The notes beneath the pieces were generated by a model. That model was not told the origin of the DNA and ran no database searches. It saw only the letters and a list, made by a program, of their open reading frames with translations. The position numbers and the translations under genes were made by a program. Below are positions 26,683-43,741 of a stretch of 50,899 nucleotides of DNA, piece after piece. Origin of the DNA: a virus; the IMG/VR virus record IMGVR_UViG_3300021440_000032, positions 1-50,899 of that record; one strand, written 5' to 3'. Each line of letters starts with the position of its first letter. Position 1 is the stretch's first letter.

Positions 26683-26907
26683 TTGGACGTAAACAACGAA
26701 GCCAGTCTGGGTCTAGGTCTGGGTCTGGGTCTAGGTCTTGGTCTTGGTCTGGGTCTGGGTCTAGGTCTGGGTCTAGGTCTAGGTCTTGGTCTTGGTCTGG
26801 GTCTGGGTCTAGGTCTAGGTCTAGGTCTAGGTCTAGGTCTGGGTCTGGGTCTGCGACCAAGACCTTTTAAGTTTCAATTCTTTCAACTCATCTGGAGATT
26901 ATTATGA
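26683..26907 (+). CDS. Gly-Leu dipeptide-repeat ORF (74 aa)
   Basis: DVNNEAS-L, then 24 Gly-Leu pairs, then RPRPFKFQFFQLIWRLL. The start would be TTG directly after the TGA of the preceding gene and in the same frame. The stop overlaps the next gene's ATG as ATGA, typical of coupled phage genes. Across 24 repeats only the third base of the Leu codon varies, as expected if the Gly-Leu protein is selected. The repeat is hydrophobic enough to enter a membrane. No family known; the ribosome site is weak. Confidence 0.5.
   Translation: MDVNNEASLGLGLGLGLGLGLGLGLGLGLGLGLGLGLGLGLGLGLGLGLGLGLGLGLRPRPFKFQFFQLIWRLL
26710..26853 (+). repeat. Hexanucleotide tandem repeat (GGTCTN)24
   Basis: 24 consecutive GGTCTN units where N is A, G or T and the other five bases never change. 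The order of N shows a repeated block (A-T-T-G-G-A occurs twice), indicating expansion by slippage or unequal recombination. Directly after it CGACCAAGACC is complementary to GGTCTTGGTC within the repeat, so an RNA hairpin is possible. Confidence 0.95.
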
Positions 26908-30750: not shown

Positions 30751-31076
30751 TGCAACACATCGTTTATCGCCATGCTGAAAATCATGGCAACCAATTCCTT
30801 GTTATAAACTATGCAGAGGTTCGAGTGTTTGGTAGCTTGTATACCATGCACGACAACTCATTCAGACCTTACGTTGAGGCTGACGCACTTCATCCTGAAC
30901 GTGCTTTTTACTACGTTGTAAATGATGAGGCTACCGCTATGAAGGTAGCGGAGTTCTGTGCCAGTAAAACCCCCGGGGTTGATTGGTACTGGGCTAAGAT
31001 TTCTGGTAAGGTGACTAGTAAGGTAGCACCTACTATTGTCACAACATTTGATGAGAAAGGGGCACTGCCCAAATGA
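30750..31076 (+). CDS. Hypothetical protein (108 aa), end of early small-gene block
   Basis: MQHIVYRHAENHGNQFLVIN and a later YVVNDEATAMKVAEFCASKT, a mixed alpha/beta shape without recognised motifs. Start and stop overlap its neighbours (TAATG and ATGA). It directly precedes the PuuD-type peptidase gene and may be the first gene of the amidoligase cassette, or the last small early gene. Confidence 0.55.
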   Translation: MQHIVYRHAENHGNQFLVINYAEVRVFGSLYTMHDNSFRPYVEADALHPERAFYYVVNDEATAMKVAEFCASKTPGVDWYWAKISGKVTSKVAPTIVTTFDEKGALPK

Positions 31077-31705
31077 AACTCGCTTCTGCAATCTATGATG
31101 ATTTTTATCCGTTCCATTCCTTTGGTCTGTTTACAGGTCATAAGGTGGTGACATTGGCTGAAGAGCTGGATGATGCTGATGCTCTGGTTGTCTGGGGCGG
31201 TGAGGATATCTCCCCATCTCTGTATAACCAAGCAGTACATCCCTATACTTCTGCTGGTGCTGCTCCATCCCGTCGTGACCGCATCGAATGGGCACTGATG
31301 CAAGCTGCTGCCAAGAAGGGTATTCCCATTATTGGTATCTGTCGTGGTGCTCAGATGCTGTGTGCATTCTCTGGTGGTACTCTGTATCAGCATGTGAACA
31401 ATCATGGTGTTGGTCGTGGTCACGAAGCAGAATGCGATGATGGGTCTATCATCACTGTCAGCAGTCTGCACCATCAAATGATGAATCCCACAAACACCGA
31501 GCATGAACTTATTGCTTGGTCCAAGGAGATTCGTAGTGATGTTCACCTAGATGCTAATGGGGATCAACCTGTTGAGATCGAGCCTGAATATGTGTACTTT
31601 CCCAAGGTTAAGGGCCACGCTATCCAATGGCATCCAGAATTCCAGGCAAAGGAAGATGGTGCTAATGTGTGGTTGAAAGATCGTTGGAATAAACTGGGGT
31701 TGTAA
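31073..31705 (+). CDS. Class I glutamine amidotransferase-like peptidase C26 (PuuD type)
   Basis: 210 residues. WGGEDISPSLY (about 41-51), the nucleophile elbow GICRGAQM with Cys90, and GHAIQWHPEF with His187 and Glu189 make the complete Cys-His-Glu triad of gamma-glutamyl-gamma-aminobutyrate hydrolase-like enzymes. These cut gamma-glutamyl or similar amide bonds. As the first enzyme of the 31-37 kb cassette it could trim, recycle or reverse the conjugates built by the ligases encoded downstream. Substrate unknown. Confidence 0.85.
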   Translation: MKLASAIYDDFYPFHSFGLFTGHKVVTLAEELDDADALVVWGGEDISPSLYNQAVHPYTSAGAAPSRRDRIEWALMQAAAKKGIPIIGICRGAQMLCAFSGGTLYQHVNNHGVGRGHEAECDDGSIITVSSLHHQMMNPTNTEHELIAWSKEIRSDVHLDANGDQPVEIEPEYVYFPKVKGHAIQWHPEFQAKEDGANVWLKDRWNKLGL

Positions 31706-32061
31706 TGCCTACTACTTTGTTAACTACAGAACAGTTGGAATACTGGCGAGTAAGATTGCCAGTAATTTCACAGTATGATATAATCTGTGGATGCTGTGGT
31801 GCAACAGCATTTGATAATGCTACGTCCAAGCTGCCTGGTTATAAATACTTCTCAGCAGCTTATGGCATCAGTCTATTTAATACCGTTGAACCACCAGCAT
31901 TGGAATATTTCATGAGTAAAGGTGGTAGATGGAACGGGTTGGATAGGTGTGAGCACCATTTTGAAACGGTTTCTCTTCCTGAGATTGGGTGGTCTTATCA
32001 CATTGTTATTCAGGATGGTGAAACACCGGAACCAGAAGACGACGAAGACGATGACTACTAA
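31705..32061 (+). CDS. Cassette protein of unknown function (118 aa)
   Basis: MPTTLLTTEQLEYWRVRLPV, then ICGCCGATAFDNATSKLPGY; CGCCG could bind metal. The end is very acidic (EPEDDEDDDY). It overlaps the peptidase stop by one base, so it is coupled to it. No family recognised. Confidence 0.55.
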   Translation: MPTTLLTTEQLEYWRVRLPVISQYDIICGCCGATAFDNATSKLPGYKYFSAAYGISLFNTVEPPALEYFMSKGGRWNGLDRCEHHFETVSLPEIGWSYHIVIQDGETPEPEDDEDDDY

Positions 32062-32377
32062 ACTGAAATTTATCCACCTTCAAGGGTTGGAAAATGCTTT
32101 ATATCGGTTGTCAGGTAATGTCCACCATGTTATTCAGTACTTGGATTATACTGGTGCATTTAACAAGGATGGAGATACTTATTGGGGGTTTATCACCGTA
32201 AATGAAAAGGACACCATTCATATGCCATATACCCCTCCTGGCCTGAAGCATCTTCTTTCCAAGTTCGACGACGTTCTTTCATACGAGGAAGTCCATAAAT
32301 CAACTCCCTTCGCCAATGTGAACTATTGGGAAGGTAACTATCTCCAATTCCATATTTACAAGGTTGCAAAGAAATGA
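32051..32377 (+). CDS. Cassette protein of unknown function (108 aa)
   Basis: Start at the internal ATG 32051; the longer open frame from 31922 lies wholly inside the preceding gene. MTTKLKFIHLQGLENALYRL, then GDTYWGFITVNEKDTIHMPY and YEEVHKSTPFANVNYWEGNY. Aromatic-rich, no enzyme motif. It overlaps the amidoligase start (ATGA). Confidence 0.55.
   Translation: MTTKLKFIHLQGLENALYRLSGNVHHVIQYLDYTGAFNKDGDTYWGFITVNEKDTIHMPYTPPGLKHLLSKFDDVLSYEEVHKSTPFANVNYWEGNYLQFHIYKVAKK
32356..32369. repeat. Dispersed palindrome, one-mismatch copy before the first amidoligase
   Basis: TTACA-aggt-TGCAA, ending 4 bases before the ATG at 32374. Confidence 0.5.
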
Positions 32378-33153
32378 ACTTTAAGATTGGCTGTGATCCT
32401 GAAGTCTTCGTTCGGGATCAGAACGGATACAGGTCTATCATCGAAACCATCGGGGGCTCCAAAGATTTTCCTCGCCCATTGGATGAACTCGGTAAGGGAT
32501 TCTGTGTCCAAGAGGATAACGTTGCTATGGAATTCAATATTCCTGCTTCGTCTTCCAAGGGTGAATTCATTACAAACGTTGTAAAAGCTCGTTTGTTCCT
32601 GGATCAACTGGTGCGGGACCAGTATGGCTGGTTCATGTCCAGTGAGTCTGCTGTTATCTTCCCTGAAGAGGAATTGCAGCATCCTATGGCCAAGGTATTC
32701 GGCTGTGATCCAGACTACAATGCCTGGAACAAGCGTCCTAACCCACGTCCTAAGGCTGCTAATGCACGTCTTCGTTCTTGTGGAGGACATGTCCACGTTG
32801 GGGCAGATCTTACAGAAGATCAGAAGTGGGCACTGGGACAAGCTATGGACTTCTATCTTGGTGTGCCATCCGTACTGATGGACAAGGGCGAGGCTCGCAA
32901 GGAACTCTATGGTAAGGCTGGGGCAATGCGCCTTAAGTCTTATGGTATGGAATATCGTACCCTGAGTAACTTCTGGATCTTTGATCAACGTCTGATTGGT
33001 TGGGTCTATGAACAGACTGCCAAGGCTGTTCAAGCAGTAGAGGTCGGCACATCCTTCAAGGATCTGCGCAAGACCATTACAAATTGTATTAACAACAATG
33101 ACAAGCAGTTGGCTCAACTGTTGGTTGATGAATATGAACTGACGACGGTGTAA
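32374..33153 (+). CDS. COOH-NH2 ligase type 2 (phiEco32-like amidoligase)
   Basis: 259 residues. FKIGCDPEVFVRDQNG (residues 3-18, Asp8/Glu10), EDNVAMEFNIPAS (about 47-59), RLRSCGGHVHVGAD (about 132-145, metal His pair) and KSYGMEYRTLSNFW (about 188-201, conserved Glu-Arg) are the key segments of the glutamine-synthetase-like amidoligase group first described from phage phiEco32. Such enzymes use ATP and metal to join a carboxylate to an amine. The substrate here is unknown. Confidence 0.82.
   Translation: MNFKIGCDPEVFVRDQNGYRSIIETIGGSKDFPRPLDELGKGFCVQEDNVAMEFNIPASSSKGEFITNVVKARLFLDQLVRDQYGWFMSSESAVIFPEEELQHPMAKVFGCDPDYNAWNKRPNPRPKAANARLRSCGGHVHVGADLTEDQKWALGQAMDFYLGVPSVLMDKGEARKELYGKAGAMRLKSYGMEYRTLSNFWIFDQRLIGWVYEQTAKAVQAVEVGTSFKDLRKTITNCINNNDKQLAQLLVDEYELTTV
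32570..32584. repeat. Dispersed palindrome, perfect copy with N5 (TTACAA-N3-TTGTAA)
   Basis: TTACA-aacgt-TGTAA, which can also be read as 6-bp arms around ACG, in the first amidoligase gene. Confidence 0.7.
33077..33089. repeat. Dispersed palindrome, one-mismatch copy (N3)
   Basis: TTACA-aat-TGTAT near the 3' end of the amidoligase gene, 65 bases before the next start. Confidence 0.5.
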
Positions 33154-33154
33154 T

Positions 33155-33748
33155 ATGGACGCTAAGTTTACTATTGAGGGAAGCCGAGACTTCTCTCAAC
33201 GATATGGTGAAAGCTATGGTTGGCTTCCTCGTGAGGGTAAGCCGGATCTTCCTGTCTATATTCGTAATGTAGACGGAGGTACTCTATACTTTGAAGATCT
33301 TGACGAGAACCAATACCATGTCTTTGCTGACAAGGATGTGTCATTCAAGTTTCACCAGATGCGACGTGCTTTGTACGTCGGTGGATCTGGCCGTGTATAT
33401 GTGATTGAACGCAGACCAGCTCGTCAATGGCAGCGTGGTGTATCCCGTAATAACACCAATCTGTTTGTTTACAATGCAGATCGTCGTCGGTTCGACCCTA
33501 GTCGCATTGGTCATGGTACGATGAGAGATATCATGGCAAAGGGTTCTAAGCCTTCTGTGCCTGGTGTCATCATGTCGGACATCTTCTGTATTCTCCACGA
33601 CACAGTGTACATGTACTACACACCAATCGGTGCAGCTAGCAACCTTGATGGTACATGGTCTGTAACTCTGTCCCCCAAGTTTGCATCATTTAAGCAAGAG
33701 CTTTCTGATGCTGCTCGTGATTCCAAAACCAAGTTTACATTTGTTTGA
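33155..33748 (+). CDS. Unknown cassette protein between the two amidoligases (197 aa)
   Basis: MDAKFTIEGSRDFSQRYGES, then YGWLPREGKPDLPVYIRNVD and many Arg/Tyr residues (RALYVGGSGRVYVIERRPAR). It starts 2 bases after the amidoligase stop and is followed by the second amidoligase after 8 bases. Basic and beta-rich, with no recognised catalytic motif. Its constant contact with the ligase genes suggests an accessory subunit or the acceptor of the modification. Confidence 0.55.
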   Translation: MDAKFTIEGSRDFSQRYGESYGWLPREGKPDLPVYIRNVDGGTLYFEDLDENQYHVFADKDVSFKFHQMRRALYVGGSGRVYVIERRPARQWQRGVSRNNTNLFVYNADRRRFDPSRIGHGTMRDIMAKGSKPSVPGVIMSDIFCILHDTVYMYYTPIGAASNLDGTWSVTLSPKFASFKQELSDAARDSKTKFTFV

Positions 33749-33756
33749 GGTGAAAC

Positions 33757-34758
33757 ATGCCTGATGATATTGAAGTTAACCCGGCTGCTGGTCTACAACC
33801 ACTGTGGAATCAAGCAATTGTTAATGCCCGTCCCCGGGCTGCAAGACCCATTGCAGGTATCCTAGATGAACTGGCCCCAGTAGGAGGGTTTGAAGTTTTC
33901 CTTCAAGATGCTGCTTTGAAGAAGCAATCTACTGCATCCGAGTATGACACTCAGATCATGGGACAGATCTGGAGCATCAAGATCCATGATCGAGTGATCA
34001 AGGCAATGGCTGCTCATCCTGGTGAAATCATCAAGGGTATCGAGCTTGAGATTGAGAACTGGCCAGAGAACTGGGCTGATTCTTCTGCGGTAGGGTTTAC
34101 ATTCACGGAAGATGGTAGCCTTCGTAACAATGGTACTGAAGCAGTAAGTCACCCGAATAATACTCGTGGTTTGCTGGCTGTGACAGAACAATTGTGGAAG
34201 AAGTTTAATATCCAGTCGGATAAGAACTTCTCTGACCGCACATCCATTCACGTTCATGCTAACGTATTTGACTTTACTGGTGCCCAGTTCAAGGCCATTA
34301 CACTGTTGTATCAGGTCTTTGAAGAGTTGCTTTTTGCATATGTCGGGGATGACCGTGCAAATAACATCTTCTGCGTACCTTGGTACGAAGCAGGTGTGAC
34401 TGCATTCAACCATCAACTAATGGTGAAGAGTCCTCGTGGTTGGAATAAATACACTGCACTGAACCTTGCTCCAGTAGCATCTCAAGGCAGTATCGAATTC
34501 CGTCATATGGCTGGTCATGCAGACATTACCAAGTTGGCTGGGTGGCTTAACATCATTGATGATCTGATGCTTTCTGCAAAGAAGACGGATTACAACAGTG
34601 TAATCGATCGTATTCAGAATATCAATACAAACTCTCAGTATGCTGAGTTCCTTTACTCTATCTTCCCTAATACGGGTTCTCTGTTGAAGACCGCGGACTA
34701 TGAACGAAAGATGTCTCGCGGTGTGGTTGAAGCCAAGCTGGCCTTGGTAGGAGCATAA
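33757..34758 (+). CDS. Amidoligase (PF12224-type, glutamine-synthetase-like fold)
   Basis: 333 residues. GIELEIENWPENW (about 89-101, the metal-binding Glu-x-Glu), TFTEDGSLRNNGTEAVSHP (about 114-132), DRTSIHVHANVFDF (His pair, about 160-173) and GSIEFRHMAGHADI (about 246-259) are the core of the putative amidoligase_2 family. It differs clearly from the ligase at 32374, so the cassette encodes two distinct amide-forming enzymes. They may act in sequence on one product. Confidence 0.82.
   Translation: MPDDIEVNPAAGLQPLWNQAIVNARPRAARPIAGILDELAPVGGFEVFLQDAALKKQSTASEYDTQIMGQIWSIKIHDRVIKAMAAHPGEIIKGIELEIENWPENWADSSAVGFTFTEDGSLRNNGTEAVSHPNNTRGLLAVTEQLWKKFNIQSDKNFSDRTSIHVHANVFDFTGAQFKAITLLYQVFEELLFAYVGDDRANNIFCVPWYEAGVTAFNHQLMVKSPRGWNKYTALNLAPVASQGSIEFRHMAGHADITKLAGWLNIIDDLMLSAKKTDYNSVIDRIQNINTNSQYAEFLYSIFPNTGSLLKTADYERKMSRGVVEAKLALVGA
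34590..34603. repeat. Dispersed palindrome, perfect copy in the second amidoligase
   Basis: TTACA-acag-TGTAA, about 160 bases before the amidotransferase start. Confidence 0.75.
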
Positions 34759-34759
34759 T

Positions 34760-36037
34760 ATGTGTGGTATCGTTGGTGTGATTAACAAGAATCCTCGTCG
34801 TGGCTTTAATCATCGAGAGGCTGAGTTGTTTCGTACCTTGCTACTGCTTGACACCCTGCGTGGCAAGGACAGTACTGGGATCTTCGGTGTGGACGCTGAT
34901 GGCAATGTAGACATTGCTAAGGATATCCTTACAGGCAGTGAGTTCACCAAGAAGAAAGAGTACCTTGACATTGAGAAGAGCATGATCCGTGATGGCTTTG
35001 CCATGATTGGGCATAATCGTGCTGCTACTCGTGGTGTTATCGTAGAAAAGAATGCTCACCCATTCTGGTATAACGACGAAGTTGTGCTGGTACATAATGG
35101 TACCTTCGCAGAAGACCATAAGAAACATGCCGACGTGGACGTGGATAGCGAGGCTCTGTGCCATCTTGTCGGTAAGCACGCTGTAGATGACGTGGATTCT
35201 GTATTCCAGAAGATTAATGCGGCATATGCAACCATTTGGTATGATGCCCGTGATAAGTCCGTGAACATCGTTCGTAATCATGAACGACCGCTGCATTTCT
35301 ATGACATGGGAGCATGTTATGTGGTGTCTTCAGAGAAGAGCATCCTTATGTTTGCACTTAGTCGATGTGACTTTAAGTTCAAGATGGAAGAGGTAGTCAT
35401 GATCAAGGAGGATGTTCATGTCAAGTTCAAGATGGAAGGCCACCAAGTCAAGGTATCCAACTCTGATATTGAGCATGTACAACCTACTTCCAAAGTATGG
35501 CCTTGGGTTCCAATTCATCAAGTTGCAAAATCAACAGAACCAATTGTTGACACCAAGAAACTCCCTAATGTGACAAAGGAGGTGATCGAAGCTGCTAACG
35601 AAGCAGGTAAGGTCATTGATTCTTTTCGTCTCGGAACAGACCGTACAAGTCACAACCAAGCCATTGACGAAGACCTTGGTCCGCAAACCAGTTACGTCCC
35701 GTTCGCAAGGTACGAAGAAGCAAGAGAGTTCTACCCTACTGACGGTACCCTTAATTTTGCTCCTCGTTCTGTTGTTTCTCTTTCAGGTGATGAGTGCTTG
35801 CTTTACGGAACTGTTCAAAACGAGCCGGACATCCTGGCGGCAGTAGTTATCTCTGAGAAGACATTGGATCGTTTGGTTAGTAGTTGTGGTGTTAACAATA
35901 TGGTCAAGATCCGTATTCGTACACAAACCTTCCTGAATAAAACAACGTCCCTTGATGTTCGTGAGAACAAGGGTTTGGTTATTATCTATGGTGTTGAACC
36001 AGAAAATGTTGAGGTGATTGAACATGCCAGTTGCTAA
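34760..36037 (+). CDS. Class II glutamine amidotransferase (Ntn-type)
   Basis: 425 residues. MCGIVGVI puts the Cys nucleophile at residue 2, as in GlmS and PurF. TLRGKDSTGIF (about 32-42), GHNRAATRG (about 83-91) and LVHNGTFAED (about 109-118) complete the glutaminase domain. It would release ammonia from glutamine for an amide-forming partner. The part after about residue 230 does not look like a known synthase domain, so ammonia is probably handed to an amidoligase or the ATP-grasp enzyme. It starts 1 base after the amidoligase stop. Confidence 0.88.
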   Translation: MCGIVGVINKNPRRGFNHREAELFRTLLLLDTLRGKDSTGIFGVDADGNVDIAKDILTGSEFTKKKEYLDIEKSMIRDGFAMIGHNRAATRGVIVEKNAHPFWYNDEVVLVHNGTFAEDHKKHADVDVDSEALCHLVGKHAVDDVDSVFQKINAAYATIWYDARDKSVNIVRNHERPLHFYDMGACYVVSSEKSILMFALSRCDFKFKMEEVVMIKEDVHVKFKMEGHQVKVSNSDIEHVQPTSKVWPWVPIHQVAKSTEPIVDTKKLPNVTKEVIEAANEAGKVIDSFRLGTDRTSHNQAIDEDLGPQTSYVPFARYEEAREFYPTDGTLNFAPRSVVSLSGDECLLYGTVQNEPDILAAVVISEKTLDRLVSSCGVNNMVKIRIRTQTFLNKTTSLDVRENKGLVIIYGVEPENVEVIEHASC

Positions 36038-36743
36038 GAAAGTAGTAATCGTTACTGAGAACATGAAATCCCAGTCGATCAAACGCCTAGCTTCCAGCTT
36101 GACCGATAAGCTTGGGTATAAGGTATGGCGAGTCCTGCCTGGTCGTGAACGTAATCGTCGTGTTGTGCGATTCAACCGTGGCTTGGATAAGCTAACACAA
36201 CTGAATAAATTTGCAGAAGCAGGACTATCATTCCCTAAATTCACCACTGATTCCTCCAAGCTTTCTGATCTGGACGAATTTAAGAATCAGAAGTATGTAG
36301 CTCGTAAGCTGCTCAATAGCAGTGAGGGTAAGGGTATTGTCATCTTTGGTGCTGACGAACCTATCCCTAATGCACCACTGTACACCCAGTATGTTCCTAA
36401 GAAAAAGGAATTCCGAGTGCATATATTTAACAACGTTGTAATTGACATTTCCGAGAAGCGGAAGAGAAAGGGTTTCGATGAAGAAGCGCGTGATACTCAT
36501 GTTCGCAATCTTGCTAATGGCTATGTGTTCTGTCGTGATTCAATCACAGAACCAGAAGGTATCCGAGATCTGGCAGTACGTGCCGTTGGGGCGTTGAACC
36601 GTACACAGGGTGCTGTGGACATTATCTGGAATGAGAAACGTAACCAATGCTACGTCTTGGAAGTAAACTCTAATCCAGGTATGGAAGGAACTACACTGGA
36701 AAAATACACTCAAGCAATCATTCGGGGGTTCAATGGAGAATAA
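36024..36743 (+). CDS. ATP-grasp ligase (RimK-like)
   Basis: 239 residues from the ATG at 36024 (GAGGTG site); a TTG at 36018 is less likely. KYVARKLLNSSEGKGIVIFG (about residues 90-109) is the ATP-binding Lys and Gly loop, YTQYVPKKKEFRVHIFNN (about 120-137) the second strand pair, and VDIIWNEKRNQCYVLEVNSN followed by PGMEGT (about 197-222) the metal-binding Glu/Asn site. It forms an acyl-phosphate and joins it to an amine or thiol, typically adding amino acids to a peptide or protein. Confidence 0.85.
   Translation: MPVAKKVVIVTENMKSQSIKRLASSLTDKLGYKVWRVLPGRERNRRVVRFNRGLDKLTQLNKFAEAGLSFPKFTTDSSKLSDLDEFKNQKYVARKLLNSSEGKGIVIFGADEPIPNAPLYTQYVPKKKEFRVHIFNNVVIDISEKRKRKGFDEEARDTHVRNLANGYVFCRDSITEPEGIRDLAVRAVGALNRTQGAVDIIWNEKRNQCYVLEVNSNPGMEGTTLEKYTQAIIRGFNGE
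36428..36441. repeat. Dispersed palindrome, one-mismatch copy in the ATP-grasp gene
   Basis: TAACA-acgt-TGTAA; core AACAACGTTGT is itself a longer perfect palindrome. Confidence 0.55.
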
Positions 36744-36972: not shown

Positions 36973-37243
36973 AGTTGTTAGCTTATGTGTATCTGACCTG
37001 CTAGGTTCCACATGGAATATCCGTTTTGATCGACTGGCTTTTTATGTGCGTGAGGTACTCCCTATAACCAAGGAAGATACAGGATTGCTCGTCTTTGGTA
37101 GTGGTCAGGAAAAACAACTGCAAGCTCTAGAAGAAAGTCCTAGAATCAAGATCCTTTACAAGAGTGTAAAATCTGTAAATGGTACTCCAGGTCATGGTGG
37201 TTTACCAAGAAATACACTCGTTATCGTGGAGTTGAATCAATAA
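36962..37243 (+). CDS. Hypothetical protein (93 aa)
   Basis: MPGKVVSLCVSDLLGSTWNI, then DTGLLVFGSGQEKQLQALEE and SVNGTPGHGGLPRNTLVIVE. Start at the ATG 36962; an earlier in-frame ATG/GTG-type start at 36935 lies in the preceding gene. Mixed alpha/beta and probably a small globular domain; no function seen. Confidence 0.5.
   Translation: MPGKVVSLCVSDLLGSTWNIRFDRLAFYVREVLPITKEDTGLLVFGSGQEKQLQALEESPRIKILYKSVKSVNGTPGHGGLPRNTLVIVELNQ
37156..37169. repeat. Dispersed palindrome, perfect copy
   Basis: TTACA-agag-TGTAA with 6-bp arms (TTTACA/TGTAAA), encoding YKSVK, about 75 bases before the next start. Confidence 0.78.
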
Positions 37244-37464
37244 TGCGTTGTGTATGCTGTAATAAGCTTCTTAGTGACTTTGAGGCAACTAGGAAACATG
37301 CTGAGACTGGTGAATATCTAGACATGTGTAATAAATGTCTTGACTTCTGCCCAGAGATCCCTTATACTGAACGATCTGATCTATGTAATGACTCAGAACT
37401 AGATGACTTCGAGGAGGATACTGAGGATGGCTGGGAGAGTAATTCAGAGGATTCCATGTCCTAA
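37243..37464 (+). CDS. Zinc-ribbon-like protein with acidic tail (73 aa)
   Basis: MRCVCCNKLLSDFEATRKHA, then YLDMCNKCLDFCPEIPYTER: two CX2C pairs (residues 3-6 and about 29-32) about 24 residues apart make a zinc ribbon. The remainder is very acidic (DDFEEDTEDGWESNSEDSMS). It precedes and overlaps the primase gene, so it may take part in replication or transcription control. Confidence 0.6.
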   Translation: MRCVCCNKLLSDFEATRKHAETGEYLDMCNKCLDFCPEIPYTERSDLCNDSELDDFEEDTEDGWESNSEDSMS

Positions 37465-38261: not shown

Positions 38262-38723
38262 ATGCAAACTTGCACACACTGCCAAATATCTAAAGAAGAC
38301 CTAGAGTTCCCTGTAAGAAACGATAGATCTGGTAGATTACGACCGTATTGTAAATCTTGCTCGAATAATATTCAGCGAAGTAGATATGAAGTTTACAAAA
38401 AGAGAAATCCGTTTTTACACAAATGTAATAGAGCTAAATCTAGGGCTTCACAATTGAAGCTACCATTTAACTTAACTCCTGATTATTTAGAAAGTTTATG
38501 GACTGGAACATGTCCTATTACTGGAGAAGCTATTTCCTTTGTAGAAAGAGACCGTTCCGATGAATTTGCTGCTGAGTTAGATAGATTTGTACCAGCATTA
38601 GGTTATGTACAAGGGAATGTTTCATTTATATCAAGAAAAATGAATAGATTAAAGAACTCCGCAACAACGGAGCAATTACAAAAATTATTGGATTGGATGT
38701 ATGACAGAATTCAAAAAAAGTGA
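38262..38723 (+). CDS. HNH-type homing endonuclease with N-terminal zinc finger
   Basis: 153 residues. CTHCQISKEDLEF...RPYCKSCS (residues 4-34) is a zinc finger. CPITGEAISFVERDRSDEFA (about 85-104) and DRFVPALGYVQGNVSFISRK with MNRLKN (about 106-131) form the His-Me-type nuclease core of a family also found at 39535. GGAGG precedes the start. It is inserted between primase and the functional thyX, whose start it overlaps. It carries its own promoter. Confidence 0.8.
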   Translation: MQTCTHCQISKEDLEFPVRNDRSGRLRPYCKSCSNNIQRSRYEVYKKRNPFLHKCNRAKSRASQLKLPFNLTPDYLESLWTGTCPITGEAISFVERDRSDEFAAELDRFVPALGYVQGNVSFISRKMNRLKNSATTEQLQKLLDWMYDRIQKK

Positions 38724-38724
38724 A

Positions 38725-39414
38725 ATGTCAGTACAATTAGTGGATCATCAAGGAACGGACCTTAGCGTTGTTAATGCAGCTAGGGTTAGTTTTGATAAGC
38801 AAAGCGATTGGGTAACAGATGATGATGATTTCTATCTTTTAGATCCGAATGAGAAAGAAATTCTAAGTGAAAAAGATGCAAAACTCATTAACTATCTCGC
38901 GAAGCATAACCACTGGACACCGTTCGGTCATGCCTTCGCAACATTCAGAATTAAGGCTCCACTTTTTGTCGCAAGGCAAATGGGAAAACATCAGGTGGGT
39001 TTGGTCTGGAACGAAGTGTCTCGCCGCTACGTCGATTCAGAACCCGAGTTTTACATTCCAGAATCGTTCAGAGGTAGGGCCGAGAACGTCAAACAAGGAA
39101 GCTCTCAAAACGCTGTAGAAACGCCTGGAGCTGGTCAAGACTACCCTGGTATTACCTATGCTGTAGAAACCGCTCTAGCGGCCTATAAAGGGCTTCTAAA
39201 GGATGGTGTTGCACCAGAACTAGCCAGAATGGTTCTCCCACAGAACATGATGACTGAATGGATCTGGTCTGGAAGCCTTGCTGCTTTCAGTCGAGTATGT
39301 AGGCTTCGCCTTGATCCTCACACTCAGATTGAGACTCAGGAAGTAGCTAAACAAATCGCTACCGAGATGGAAGTTCTGTTCCCTGTTTCATGGGTAGCGC
39401 TACAAAATGACTGA
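38725..39414 (+). CDS. thyX: Flavin-dependent thymidylate synthase
   Basis: 229 residues from the ATG at 38725 (chosen by alignment with the remnant; an upstream in-frame ATG lies in the HNH gene). The ThyX signature is present in its phage form KHQVGLVWNEVSRRYV (about residues 93-108). NAARVSF (about 16-22) and LPQNMMTEWIWSGSLAAFS (about 177-195) are also typical. It makes dTMP from dUMP with methylene-tetrahydrofolate and FAD. With NrdJ and dCMP deaminase it supplies nucleotides for replication. Confidence 0.93.
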   Translation: MSVQLVDHQGTDLSVVNAARVSFDKQSDWVTDDDDFYLLDPNEKEILSEKDAKLINYLAKHNHWTPFGHAFATFRIKAPLFVARQMGKHQVGLVWNEVSRRYVDSEPEFYIPESFRGRAENVKQGSSQNAVETPGAGQDYPGITYAVETALAAYKGLLKDGVAPELARMVLPQNMMTEWIWSGSLAAFSRVCRLRLDPHTQIETQEVAKQIATEMEVLFPVSWVALQND

Positions 39415-39574
39415 CAGAGATCTATGGAAGATGTGGTGGTTTGCTACTCTTTACGGTTCTTCACCACAAAAACGTATGGAACTACTTGACAAACAGCATT
39501 GTGTATGCTACAATAGATATAAGGAGGAAAAAGTTTGTCATTTAAAACAAGCAACAAATGGCAGTCAGAACTAG
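39407..39574 (+). CDS. Small ORF, probably disrupted by the following HNH insertion (55 aa)
   Basis: MTDRDLWKMWWFATLYGSSP then QKRMELLDKQHCVCYN..., starting inside the thyX stop region (coupled ATGACTGA). The first 29 residues look like a genuine phage protein start. From about codon 28 the frame runs over the HNH promoter and ribosome site, so the present C-terminus is likely new and an original gene may have been cut off. Confidence 0.4.
   Translation: MTDRDLWKMWWFATLYGSSPQKRMELLDKQHCVCYNRYKEEKVCHLKQATNGSQN
39486..39514 (+). promoter_or_regulatory. Near-consensus sigma70 promoter of the second HNH gene
   Basis: TTGACA, 17 bases, TACAAT (5 of 6). It shares the CTTGACAAAC start with the promoter at 38212, suggesting a common origin for the two mobile cassettes. 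Confidence 0.85.
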
Positions 39575-40089
39575 ATAAACTTCTATATCTATCAGAACAA
39601 GGGAACTCTTTTGAAGAGATTGGTAAGGTGTATGGTGTAAGCCGTCAACGTATCAAGCAGGTATTCAAAAGATATAACCTACCTCATAAGGGTGTAAGGT
39701 ATCTAGTCAAGCTTCGTAGAGAAGCTGAAAAGGTAGACTACAAACTAAAGTGGGGAGATAAGGATGATACTGATCTCTATCGTGCTAAACGAGCTAAGTT
39801 TCGTGGTAAAAGAGATAATGCCAAACGAGCAGGAATTCCTTTTAACATCGAGTTTGGAGAATTAGTATTTCCAAATGTCTGCCCAGTACTAGGAATCCCT
39901 ATTGACTACTTCTCAGATGGTAGATCAGAAAATAGTCCTAGTTTTGATAGGATTAAACTAGATTTAGGGTATGTTTCAGGTAATGTTGTGATCATGTCCT
40001 GGAGAGCAAACAGGATTAAAAATGATGGTACAGCAGAGGAACATAAACTAATTGCACAATATCTTAGCAATATGAATGAACAACCTTGA
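39535..40089 (+). CDS. Homing endonuclease with N-terminal helix-turn-helix
   Basis: 184 residues from a TTG at 39535 (AAGGAGG 7 bases upstream). FEEIGKVYGVSRQRIKQVFK (about residues 22-41) is a helix-turn-helix. The C-terminal part, CPVLGIPIDYF...SFDRIKLDLGYVSGNVVIMS with WRANRIKN (about 117-159), is clearly related to that of the nuclease at 38262. It sits between thyX and the helicase and overlaps the helicase start by 14 bases. Confidence 0.78.
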   Translation: MSFKTSNKWQSELDKLLYLSEQGNSFEEIGKVYGVSRQRIKQVFKRYNLPHKGVRYLVKLRREAEKVDYKLKWGDKDDTDLYRAKRAKFRGKRDNAKRAGIPFNIEFGELVFPNVCPVLGIPIDYFSDGRSENSPSFDRIKLDLGYVSGNVVIMSWRANRIKNDGTAEEHKLIAQYLSNMNEQP

Positions 40090-41504: not shown

Positions 41505-41692
41505 TGGCATATTATTCCTATAAAGAAGTGCGTGATCTTATCCCATCTGAATTCTCAGATAGATTTATAGCTGGTTTTGGAGATACTTATGATCATGATG
41601 CAAACTATAATGGAGATATGTGGCTCTTAACTGCTGCTTATATAGAGCATCTACTTGAGAGGATTCGCAAGCTTGAGAACCCTAATATTTGA
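41504..41692 (+). CDS. Small hypothetical protein (62 aa)
   Basis: MAYYSYKEVRDLIPSEFSDR, ending ERIRKLENPNI. Helical. It starts at the stop of the preceding gene (ATAATG) and its end overlaps the polymerase gene start. Not recognised. Confidence 0.55.
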   Translation: MAYYSYKEVRDLIPSEFSDRFIAGFGDTYDHDANYNGDMWLLTAAYIEHLLERIRKLENPNI

Positions 41693-42848
41693 CGGCGAAA
41701 CGTCGATCAAGAATAAAGGCAATCCGTTTACAGATGGAAACTTTCTTGTTTCTTTTGGCTGGGGCCTACTTGATGATGATTCCGATAGGTTTACTTACTA
41801 TCGGGACGCTGATTTTCTTAGCGATTTTCGACAAGCCCTATCGGTAGCTGACTGTATAGTTGGTGTAAATATCAAGTTTGATATCCACTGGCTTCGTAAA
41901 TACAACATTGTAATTCCACCACATGTAAAAGTGTGGGACTGCTCTATCGCTGAGTTTATCCTATCAGGGCAGAAATCTGTCCTCCCATCCATGAATAAGA
42001 TGTGTGATTTGTATGGGATAACAAACAAGCAAGGCGGTCTGGAAGACTATTGGAATGCAGGTATATCCACTGAATCAATTCCTGTTGATGTGGTCAAGGA
42101 TTACCAGTTGGGTGACATATGGAGAACAAAACAGATCTTCATTCACCAACAGAACGATCCTAGACTAACAAAGACAGACAAGCTAGAACAACTGATCTAC
42201 CTAGACGGAGAAGATCTTAAAGTACTTCAGGATATGGAGTATAACGGAATTAAGTATGACATTCAAGAATCTATTTCAAAAGCTGAAGTTCTGGAAGCAG
42301 AAGCCAAAGAGTTACACCGCATCCTATTGGGATTTAGCTCAGACCCCGAAATCAACTTCGGTTCCCCCGATCAACTCTCTGCGTACTTATTCGGGGGTTG
42401 GTATGAATCCAGTAAGTCCGAAGTACGCTCCTTACAGTACAAGTCAGGCCCTCGCAAGGGAGAATTCTATGACAGAAACGTCACAGTCGAGCGACGTATT
42501 CACAGACACCATGGTTGGTTTGATGCTCCTGTCGGAAATGAACTCGCGAAGTCAACCACAGAGCGTAGAATCTATTCTACAGCCGACGGAGTGTTGTCCC
42601 AGTTGCGATGCAGATCAAGAGTGCAGCGACTCATCATCGAGTCCTTGCAACGACTAACTGAAATTGAGAAGCTAACTACAACATATCTTAGAAAGCTTCC
42701 TGCGCTCATAGAGGAGATGGAATGGGGAGAATACCTACATGGTCAGTTCAACCAAACAATTGCAGCCACGGGCCGTTTAAGCAGTTCTAAGCCTAATATG
42801 CAGAACTCACCTCCAATCTCTGACCAGATGTTAATTACAAGGTGGTAA
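41673..42848 (+). CDS. DNA polymerase I-type, N-terminal half (3'-5' exonuclease and start of polymerase domain)
   Basis: 391 residues from a TTG at 41673 (GAGAGG upstream; TTG at 41655 is an alternative). Exonuclease motifs: LIFDGETS (Exo I, Asp/Glu), VGVNIKFDIHWL (Exo II) and KDYQLGDIWRTKQIF (Exo III). The end, FNQTIAATGRLSSSKPNMQN then SPPISDQMLITRW, is the start of the polymerase domain just before motif A. It then stops at TAA. Motifs A, B and C lie in the separate ORF at 43019. Confidence 0.88.
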   Translation: MRTLIFDGETSIKNKGNPFTDGNFLVSFGWGLLDDDSDRFTYYRDADFLSDFRQALSVADCIVGVNIKFDIHWLRKYNIVIPPHVKVWDCSIAEFILSGQKSVLPSMNKMCDLYGITNKQGGLEDYWNAGISTESIPVDVVKDYQLGDIWRTKQIFIHQQNDPRLTKTDKLEQLIYLDGEDLKVLQDMEYNGIKYDIQESISKAEVLEAEAKELHRILLGFSSDPEINFGSPDQLSAYLFGGWYESSKSEVRSLQYKSGPRKGEFYDRNVTVERRIHRHHGWFDAPVGNELAKSTTERRIYSTADGVLSQLRCRSRVQRLIIESLQRLTEIEKLTTTYLRKLPALIEEMEWGEYLHGQFNQTIAATGRLSSSKPNMQNSPPISDQMLITRW

Positions 42849-43025
42849 ATGGAAGAGAACACAACTTATAATTTGGTGTATAGACTTAGGAAAAGAGCGG
42901 AAATTAGACTATCTATTCCTGGTAGGAAATCTGTTCAGAATAATGAATCGGATAGAATAGCGGAACTCCTACTTGAAGCCGCAGATAGGATTGAAACATT
43001 AGAAAGCTATCTTGAAGGATGCTAA
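42849..43025 (+). CDS. 58-residue ORF splitting the polymerase gene
   Basis: MEENTTYNLVYRLRKRAEIR then LSIPGRKSVQNNESDRIAEL, ending AADRIETLESYLEGC. It starts directly at the stop of the first polymerase half (TAAATGG, AAGGTGG site). Its end overlaps the start of the second half by 7 bases, so ribosomes could pass through all three. The DRIAELLLEAADRIE phrase is common in small phage proteins. It has no nuclease motif. It looks like an inserted accessory gene or what remains of a mobile element. Confidence 0.7.
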   Translation: MEENTTYNLVYRLRKRAEIRLSIPGRKSVQNNESDRIAELLLEAADRIETLESYLEGC

Positions 43026-43741
43026 TCAATGCTGACGTAAAAAGTTTGGAAGTATATGTAGCATGTGACCTCAGTGGAGACAAGACACTATATGATGAGC
43101 TAATGATTCCTGGTAACGATATGCATACAAACAATCAGAATGCATTCGGACTACCAAGCAGAGTCATTGCGAAAATATTCGTCTTTAAGCTACTATATGG
43201 AGCATCTGCATATGGTTATGCCAATGACCCAGACTTCGTAGCAGTATCACGTAAGGAGAAGTTCTGGCAGGATGTCATTGATAACTTCTATTCCAAGTAC
43301 CCATCTATTGCCATATGGCATAAAAAACTAATCAAGGAGGCACAAACAAATGGATTTCTTAGTATCCCCAGTGGTCGTTACTATCCTATTGATCCTATTA
43401 TTCGCGGCGGTAGGGTCAAGTGGCCTGAGACTATCATCAAAAATTACCCAGTTCAAGGCTTCGGCGCTGATCTCGTTAAGCTTGCTCGGATCGAGACTGC
43501 ACGCCGCTTTCGTGAAGAAGTAAAGCGTGGGTGCCTAGTTGGCACTATCCACGACTCAATCGTAGCAGATGTTCCTGATGACGAAGTAGAACTTTCTTGT
43601 AGAATTATGAAAGAAAGTATTGCAAAAGTCCCAGAACTATGCTATAATATTTATAGACACAAATTTTCTTTACCTATGCTTTGTGAAGTACAGGTAGGAA
43701 CAAACAAGAATGACATGAAGGAGTTTCATTTTGATCATTAA
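43019..43741 (+). CDS. DNA polymerase I-type, C-terminal half (palm and fingers)
   Basis: 240 residues. LINADVKSLEVYVACDLSGD (residues 2-21) is motif A with the catalytic Asp. SRVIAKIFVFKLLYGASAYG (about 47-66) is motif B/O helix with Arg, Lys, Tyr-Gly. CLVGTIHDSIVADV (about 173-186) is motif C with His-Asp. Together with the upstream half it makes a full family A polymerase; here the two must associate as separate chains or be joined at the RNA or protein level. Confidence 0.9.
   Translation: MLINADVKSLEVYVACDLSGDKTLYDELMIPGNDMHTNNQNAFGLPSRVIAKIFVFKLLYGASAYGYANDPDFVAVSRKEKFWQDVIDNFYSKYPSIAIWHKKLIKEAQTNGFLSIPSGRYYPIDPIIRGGRVKWPETIIKNYPVQGFGADLVKLARIETARRFREEVKRGCLVGTIHDSIVADVPDDEVELSCRIMKESIAKVPELCYNIYRHKFSLPMLCEVQVGTNKNDMKEFHFDH

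What the first reader, a model, noticed from the sequence alone, without database searches (positions are those of the whole stretch)
31073..36743. Amide/peptide-bond cassette: PuuD-type peptidase, two distinct amidoligases, class II glutaminase and ATP-grasp ligase
Seen: five enzymes with intact catalytic motifs in one tightly packed run, interleaved with three unknown proteins (31705, 32051, 33155). Known: COOH-NH2 ligase type 2, amidoligase_2, GATase II and ATP-grasp genes occur together in phiEco32-type phages and were proposed to make novel peptide or protein modifications. Inferred: the phage makes an amidated or peptide-like conjugate, on a protein, the cell surface or a small molecule, and the C26 peptidase trims or recycles it. 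Two different amidoligases plus an ammonia source imply several bond-forming steps. Product and target are undescribed as far as I can tell.
Basis: partly seen in the sequence, partly recalled or inferred. Interest (0 to 1): 0.88.

Follow-up and report, generated by a model that had tools for sequence, protein, structure and literature searches.

The report
Known phage amide-bond-making gene cassette
This uncultured bacterial virus carries a diverged copy of an enzyme cassette, already recognised in many phages, that should build and trim unusual amide bonds early in infection; its product is still unknown, but the comparison here adds a sixth conserved protein and shows that one kind of bond-cutting enzyme is always present.

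Summary
Five enzymes with intact catalytic residues lie in a tightly packed run: C26 peptidase (31073-31705), COOH-NH2 ligase (32374-33153), Amidoligase_2 (33757-34758), class II glutaminase (34760-36037) and RimK-like ATP-grasp (36024-36743).

The cassette is not new. [quoted passage not shown]

Comparison with 59 other cassette-bearing phage records adds two points that I did not find in the papers I could read.
(1) The unknown gene at 33155-33748 ("X") is a sixth core component. It sits between the two amidoligases in nearly all relatives, diverges fast, and has a confident, mostly beta model (pLDDT 94) without a solved relative. Crassvirales-type cassettes lack it.
(2) Every record except one cut-off fragment carries a gamma-glutamyl-cleaving enzyme, from one of two unrelated families. 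All 11 records without C26 have gamma-glutamyl cyclotransferase (GGCT), against 6 of 48 with C26 (Fisher p=4e-8, phylogeny ignored).

Most likely mechanism: a cytoplasmic pathway forming about three amide bonds through a gamma-glutamyl intermediate, which C26 or GGCT cleaves. Product and target are unproven; peptidoglycan precursor and soluble metabolite lead. The genes at 31705 and 32051 were found only in this window.

The parts
31073..31705 (+). C26-type cysteine hydrolase (gamma-glutamyl-amide hydrolase type; triad Cys90-His187-Glu189)
   Evidence: Pfam PF07722 E=1.9e-23; phrog_7218 2e-39; best NCBIfam hits gamma-glutamyl-CDP-amidate hydrolase and PuuD, both far below equivalog cut-offs; triad 98-100% conserved in 46 homologues
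31705..32061 (+). orphan protein of 118 aa, not part of the conserved cassette
   Evidence: no Pfam or PHROG hit; no homologue in fetched loci
32051..32377 (+). orphan protein of 108 aa, not part of the conserved cassette
   Evidence: no Pfam or PHROG hit; no homologue in fetched loci
32374..33153 (+). COOH-NH2 ligase type 2 (phiEco32-like carboxylate-amine ligase)
   Evidence: PF14395 E=6e-11; phrog_3815 5e-76; 28 invariant columns among 27 sequences
33155..33748 (+). protein X: sixth core component, no known function, mostly beta with SH3/Tudor-like barrel; conserved Arg86, Arg90, Gly159
   Evidence: iterated profile finds it in 45 of 52 loci and in phiEco32-like and Zobellviridae phages; = phrog_11055 plus phrog_4877; AlphaFold pLDDT 94.2; no PDB match at E<=1e-3
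33757..34758 (+). Amidoligase_2 (second carboxylate-amine ligase)
   Evidence: PF12224 24.0 bits vs cut-off 22; all 25 aligned relatives match it; 17 invariant columns incl. E96, E98, E100, H165, H167, E247, R249
34760..36037 (+). class II (Ntn) glutamine amidotransferase; residues 1-238 glutaminase, 239-328 mostly disordered linker, about 329-410 small beta domain; no synthetase domain
   Evidence: PF13522 E=3.3e-13; fold matches GlmS, PurF and EgtC glutaminases, E down to 8e-14; AlphaFold domain layout; Cys2, Arg87, Asn113, Gly114, Asp129 conserved
36024..36743 (+). RimK-like ATP-grasp ligase (start ATG 36024)
   Evidence: PF08443 23.4 bits vs 21; phrog_2599 2e-46; alignment to S6 and alpha-L-glutamate ligases of the PDB; D201, E215, N217 invariant

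Best explanation
This is a diverged member of the known phage cassette of two carboxylate-amine ligases, a class II glutaminase and a RimK-like ATP-grasp ligase, with two further constant parts: protein X and one gamma-glutamyl-cleaving enzyme (C26 here, GGCT elsewhere). Most likely working: the cassette acts in the cytoplasm soon after infection. The COOH-NH2 ligase, Amidoligase_2 and ATP-grasp each activate a carboxylate with ATP and join it to an amine, giving up to three amide or peptide bonds. The glutaminase supplies ammonia or glutamate to a partner ligase, since it has no synthetase domain of its own. At least one intermediate carries a gamma-glutamyl amide, placed by one of the GS-like ligases as a protecting or activating group, and the C26 enzyme hydrolyses it. 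Protein X is a non-catalytic beta-barrel subunit or adaptor that holds the two amidoligases or their substrate. Shown: gene content, intact motifs, conserved order, C26/GGCT complementarity. Inferred: the reactions, the gamma-glutamyl intermediate, X's role. The final target is not determined; a peptidoglycan precursor and a soluble metabolite are the leading options.
For: Family hits and intact active sites. Loci retrieved with the COOH-NH2 ligase alone carry the rest: of 52 loci, Amidoligase_2 in 49, glutaminase in 50, ATP-grasp in 48, C26 in 46, X in 45, with several of the gaps at contig ends. Order C26-(GAT)-CNL-X-AL2-(GAT)-ATP-grasp is kept at mean pairwise identities of 19-44% and, with GGCT in place of C26 in some, in phages of Zobellviridae, Grimontviridae, Kuravirus, Krylovvirus and Vicosavirus. 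Of 60 records tested whole, 59 carry C26 or GGCT. All 11 intact records without C26 have GGCT, against 6 of 48 with C26; Fisher p=4.4e-8. Relatives of both enzymes are rare in phages: 57 and 143 of 50,697 records by tblastn. C26's nearest named relatives cut gamma-glutamyl amides. Glutaminase without a synthetase domain. X modelled as mostly beta, with only weak Tudor/SH3 matches. Early transcription of the homologous cassette in PSA-HP1 (PMC7082346).
Against: No product or enzyme activity of any such cassette was found in the papers read. C26 and GGCT could each serve as a general scavenger (for example of glutathione) instead of a dedicated deprotection step. The C26/GGCT statistic ignores phylogeny; the 11 C26-negative records come from roughly six lineages, and six records have both enzymes. 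Neither ligase has a solved relative by sequence, so gamma-glutamyl specificity rests on family names. Crassvirales-type and related cassettes lack X, so X is not essential to the chemistry everywhere.
Confidence: 0.6

Rival explanations
1. Peptidoglycan modification: the ligases add unusual amide linkages to the peptide side chains of cell-wall precursors, to hinder superinfection or to prepare the wall for the phage's own lysis enzymes (published hypothesis).
For: Stated for the homologous cassettes in PMC5498523 and PMC11945000 (citing Iyer and Hardies); cassette transcribed at once on infection in PSA-HP1 (PMC7082346); peptidoglycan contains a gamma-glutamyl bond, and RimK-like and D-Ala-D-Ala ATP-grasp families make such bonds (one search lists D-Ala-D-Ala ligase among weak hits); the named hosts all have peptidoglycan.
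Against: No experiment found. The known C26 and GGCT enzymes act on gamma-L-glutamyl compounds, while the wall has gamma-D-Glu (established knowledge). The named hosts are mostly Gram-negative, where the wall is not the outer surface, so blocking adsorption this way is doubtful. No cell-wall-specific domain is in the cassette.
Confidence: 0.35
2. Soluble metabolite: the cassette makes or remodels a small gamma-glutamylated molecule (antimetabolite, polyamine or thiol conjugate, signal) that changes host metabolism or inhibits host defence or competitors.
For: Combination of GS-like ligase, ATP-grasp, glutaminase and C26/GGCT resembles gamma-glutamyl protection pathways (PuuA/PuuD; BtrJ/BtrG of butirosin, from knowledge; phage tf's GGCT is annotated as BtrG-like); the two nearest NCBIfam neighbours of C26 are small-molecule hydrolases; no protein-binding or wall-binding domain was recognised by Pfam.
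Against: No carrier protein, exporter or tailoring enzyme is constant in the cassette. No metabolomic data found.
Confidence: 0.35
3. Protein modification: the RimK-like ligase and amidoligases add amino acids to a host or phage protein, as RimK does to ribosomal protein S6.
For: RimK-family hits in Pfam, PDB and PHROGs.
Against: Score is far below the RimK equivalog cut-off (24.1 vs 331 bits); similarity to MptN and D-Ala-D-Ala ligase is as good; two further ligases and a C26 enzyme are not needed for tail glutamylation.
Confidence: 0.15
4. Modification of phage DNA bases with amino acids or amides.
For: Position next to replication genes; glutamyl- and putrescinyl-modified thymidines exist in other phages (knowledge).
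Against: None of the genes scanned in the window is recognised as a known base-hypermodification enzyme, though not every gene was scanned; no C26/GGCT role is known there.
Confidence: 0.04
5. Chance neighbours without a common function.
For: None beyond the lack of biochemistry.
Against: Same set and near-constant order over very diverged phages; rank correlations of pairwise distances among C26, CNL, X, AL2 and GAT of 0.62-0.75.
Confidence: 0.01

Closest known systems
Putative peptidoglycan modification cassette of RIO-1/PSA-HP1 and LUZ24-like phages (PMC5498523; PMC11945000; UFV-P2 in PMC3890496)
   Same: COOH-NH2 ligase, unknown protein of about 190 aa, Amidoligase_2, class II glutaminase and ATP-grasp in the same order (UFV-P2; tf)
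   Different: C26 hydrolase in place of GGCT; gene X only 13-33% identical to relatives in the aligned set; two extra orphan genes between C26 and the first ligase; no small protein between glutaminase and ATP-grasp
Cassette of Alcaligenes phage vB_Af_QDWS535 (L044) and IMG/VR relatives L002-L004, L006
   Same: same order C26-CNL-X-AL2-GAT-ATP-grasp; QDWS535 terminase also related
   Different: QDWS535 has a GGCT gene in addition; the IMG/VR relatives are 55% identical at most over the first ligase
Cassette of PA11 and other Zobellviridae (L048, L049, L058)
   Same: same six components, with C26
   Different: glutaminase lies before the first ligase instead of after the second
Cassette of phiEco32-like Kuravirus and Grimontviridae (SU10, 7-11, GAP52)
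   Same: first ligase, X, second ligase, glutaminase, ATP-grasp in the same order
   Different: GGCT instead of C26, sometimes kilobases away; two extra genes upstream; larger ATP-grasp and glutaminase
PuuD / gamma-glutamyl-CDP-amidate hydrolase (C26)
   Same: fold family and catalytic triad
   Different: far below both equivalog cut-offs; substrate unknown

Membership tests
phiEco32/LUZ24/RIO-1-type amidoligase cassette | COOH-NH2 ligase type 2 (PF14395) | tested here: met
   42.5 bits vs cut-off 25; phrog_3815 5e-76
phiEco32/LUZ24/RIO-1-type amidoligase cassette | Amidoligase_2 (PF12224) downstream | tested here: met
   24.0 bits vs 22, all 25 relatives match
phiEco32/LUZ24/RIO-1-type amidoligase cassette | class II glutaminase with N-terminal Cys | tested here: met
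phiEco32/LUZ24/RIO-1-type amidoligase cassette | RimK-like ATP-grasp ligase with metal ligands | tested here: met
phiEco32/LUZ24/RIO-1-type amidoligase cassette | protein X between the two amidoligases | tested here: met
phiEco32/LUZ24/RIO-1-type amidoligase cassette | GGCT (PF06094) as in the LUZ24-like and PSA-HP1 descriptions | tested here: not met
   no match in the window record; C26 takes its place, as in PA11, which PMC5498523 lists among the cassette phages, so GGCT itself is not a defining feature
phiEco32/LUZ24/RIO-1-type amidoligase cassette | biochemical product (cell wall or other) | not testable with these tools
   no activity published in the papers read
PuuD (gamma-Glu-GABA hydrolase) | equivalog score | tested here: not met
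   34.2 bits vs cut-off 266
RimK (S6 glutamate ligase) | equivalog score | tested here: not met
   24.1 bits vs 331
GlmS | isomerase domains after the glutaminase | tested here: not met
   linker plus small beta domain only; 48.8 bits vs 418
Known anti-phage defence systems (PADLOC) | strong profile match | tested here: not met
   only a 15-bit weak hit

The most novel reading that the evidence does not exclude
The cassette is a complete protect-couple-deprotect pathway to an undescribed gamma-glutamyl-derived phage molecule or conjugate (not ordinary peptidoglycan), in which C26 and GGCT are interchangeable deprotecting enzymes and protein X is a new scaffold or acceptor on which the two amidoligases work.
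Probability: 0.25. Interest if true: 0.72.

Novelty: new member of a known kind. Interest (0 to 1): 0.42.

Why it matters
Relatives of the first ligase are in 311 sequenced phage records, including Pseudomonas and E. coli phages studied for therapy, so a pathway used by many phages still has no known product. The constant presence of a gamma-glutamyl-cleaving enzyme from either of two unrelated families narrows the chemistry and points to one mutant (C26 Cys90, or its GGCT counterpart) in which an intermediate should accumulate. Protein X gives a sixth component that the annotations seen here list only as hypothetical.

Tried and rejected
Single-sequence searches for X found nothing; only iterated profiles did. 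Sequence-profile search of X and both ligases against the PDB gave nothing usable. Profile comparison of the two amidoligases did not show them to be related (probability 2%), so 'two distinct amidoligases' stands. The idea that the C-terminal beta domain of the glutaminase is related to X was tested and not supported. A carrier-protein reading of the small zinc-ribbon protein at 37243-37464 was dropped: found in only 13 loci and not tied to the cassette's presence. The small protein between glutaminase and ATP-grasp in phiEco32/LUZ24-like phages is absent here. The lower distance correlations of ATP-grasp are not read as independent history, because some loci hold two ATP-grasp genes and the best-scoring copy was taken. 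Iyer 2009 and Hardies 2013 are not held in the library, so their content is cited through later papers. A defence-system reading has no support.
Full report
The window is an IMG/VR virus record of 50,899 bases. Terminase, portal and head genes lie on the minus strand and replication genes on the plus strand. The closest named isolate found is Alcaligenes phage vB_Af_QDWS535, by Amidoligase_2 and terminase (second only to an uncultured record).

Observation. Curated Pfam cut-offs are passed for all five. PHROGs matches are stronger. Over 46-51 homologues the catalytic residues are near-invariant: C26 Cys90, His187, Glu189; glutaminase Cys2, Arg87, Asn113-Gly114, Asp129; ATP-grasp Asp201, Glu215, Asn217; Asp8, Glu10, Glu53, His139, His141, Arg186, Glu193, Arg195 in the first ligase; Glu96, Glu98, Glu100, His165, His167, Glu247, Arg249 in the second. 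The ATP-grasp start is better placed at ATG 36024.

Same cassette elsewhere. A search with the first ligase alone brought 42 IMG/VR loci. Iterated profiles over these plus eight named-phage loci, the window and a window-derived locus found Amidoligase_2 in 49, glutaminase in 50, ATP-grasp in 48, C26 in 46 and X in 45 of 52 loci. Two main orders occur: C26-CNL-X-AL2-GAT-ATP (as here) and C26-GAT-CNL-X-AL2-ATP. The trio CNL-X-AL2 is kept in nearly all. Annotated phages confirm it: QDWS535, UFV-P2, GAP52, Vibrio 1.293.O, Pecta, PA11, 7-11, 3H10_20, Vp_R1, SU10, CVT22, WD615, LAh_6 and tf; in UFV-P2 X is assigned by position only and in tf the profile match is weak (E=0.003). A variant without X occurs in the Crassvirales phages phi14:2 and cr108_1, in a Leptolyngbya phage, and in L015 and L039.

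Protein X. The gene at 33155-33748 has no Pfam or NCBIfam family, only chance-level PHROGs matches on its own, and no single-sequence relative in the phage collection. The iterated profile nevertheless connects it to the protein at the same position across the cassettes. Members fall in phrog_11055 (28 of 34) and phrog_4877 (5 of 34), both of unknown function. Arg86, Arg90 and Gly159 are nearly invariant. AlphaFold gives a confident model (pLDDT 94.2, pTM 0.86), mostly beta. No solved structure matches at E<=1e-3; the best weak hits are Tudor/SH3-type barrels. Nine predicted viral proteins match, among them one of Salinivibrio phage CW02, which PMC5498523 lists with the cassette. A binding or scaffold role is inferred, not shown.

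Gamma-glutamyl-cleaving enzyme. Sixty whole records were scanned for PF07722 (C26) and PF06094 (GGCT): the window, 41 other IMG/VR records and 18 named phages. C26 is in 48 and GGCT in 17. Twelve lack C26. One is a 19-kb fragment cut about 110 bases upstream of the first ligase, and the other eleven all have GGCT. Among the 48 with C26, six have GGCT. Fisher's exact test gives p=4.4e-8, without correction for kinship; the eleven come from about six lineages. Relatives of both genes are rare in phages at large: tblastn finds relatives of this C26 in 57, and of the tf GGCT in 143, of 50,697 records; tblastn with one query misses distant relatives, so these are lower bounds. The nearest named relatives of C26 in NCBIfam are gamma-glutamyl-CDP-amidate hydrolase and PuuD, which cut gamma-glutamyl amides, but scores are far below their equivalog cut-offs. 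I read this as one step, cleavage of a gamma-glutamyl amide, that every cassette needs and that two unrelated folds supply. This is an inference.

Glutaminase. Its first 238 residues match GlmS, PurF and EgtC glutaminase domains. Then comes a mostly disordered linker and a small beta domain. There is no synthetase domain, so ammonia or glutamate must go to a partner. Most relatives end in a CxxC..CxxC ribbon that this copy and its nearest relatives have lost.

Mechanism. Three ATP-dependent carboxylate-amine ligases, a glutaminase and a gamma-glutamyl hydrolase fit a pathway that puts a gamma-glutamyl group on an amine, couples it to further residues, and removes the group. Known parallels are PuuA/PuuD and, by annotation of the tf GGCT as BtrG-like, butirosin BtrJ/BtrG; the parallels themselves are from general knowledge. 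The target is open. The published proposal is peptidoglycan (PMC5498523; PMC11945000). Known C26 and GGCT enzymes act on gamma-L-glutamyl compounds while the wall has gamma-D-Glu, and most named hosts are Gram-negative, so a soluble metabolite is as likely in my view. Early action is supported in PSA-HP1, whose homologous genes are expressed immediately after infection (PMC7082346).

Novelty. The kind is known. PMC5498523 lists phiEco32, 7-11, PA11, tf, MR299-2, LUZ24, PaP3, CW02 and RIO-1 with it, and PMC3890496 gives the same gene order in UFV-P2. What I did not find in the papers read is X as a core family and the C26/GGCT exchange. Interest is therefore moderate.

Noticed in passing
41655-42848 and 43019-43741: Family A DNA polymerase is split into two ORFs at about motif A by 170 bases; 'MLI' is encoded on both sides of the gap. 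No Rfam intron at gathering threshold. LUZ24 is reported to have an intron in this gene (PMC3517423).
   Followed up: partly
845-1354: Small HslV-like Ntn peptidase (phrog_1040, 2.3e-33) with Thr after Met1, next to an HNH endonuclease at 367-867.
   Followed up: no
26705-26853: Array of about 25 copies of a 6-base unit GTCTGG/GTCTAG (91% match), downstream of tRNA-Met, between the late and early modules.
   Followed up: no
37243-37464: Small zinc-ribbon protein with acidic tail just after the cassette, conserved in 13 loci of this phage group.
   Followed up: partly
38262-38723 and 39535-40089: Two related endonuclease-VII/HNH-like genes flank thyX (38701-39414) and separate primase from helicase.
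   Followed up: no
L057:3812-5993, L061:4172-5985 and the same place in L050, L055: phiEco32/LUZ24-like cassettes have two extra genes of about 290-400 aa just upstream of the first ligase, not seen in C26-type cassettes.
   Followed up: no
L023, L040, L043: Some cassettes carry two ATP-grasp genes, one on each side.
   Followed up: no
L052:6779-7426: In the Leptolyngbya phage, a second C26 gene sits between the first ligase and the ATP-grasp, where other cassettes have X.
   Followed up: no
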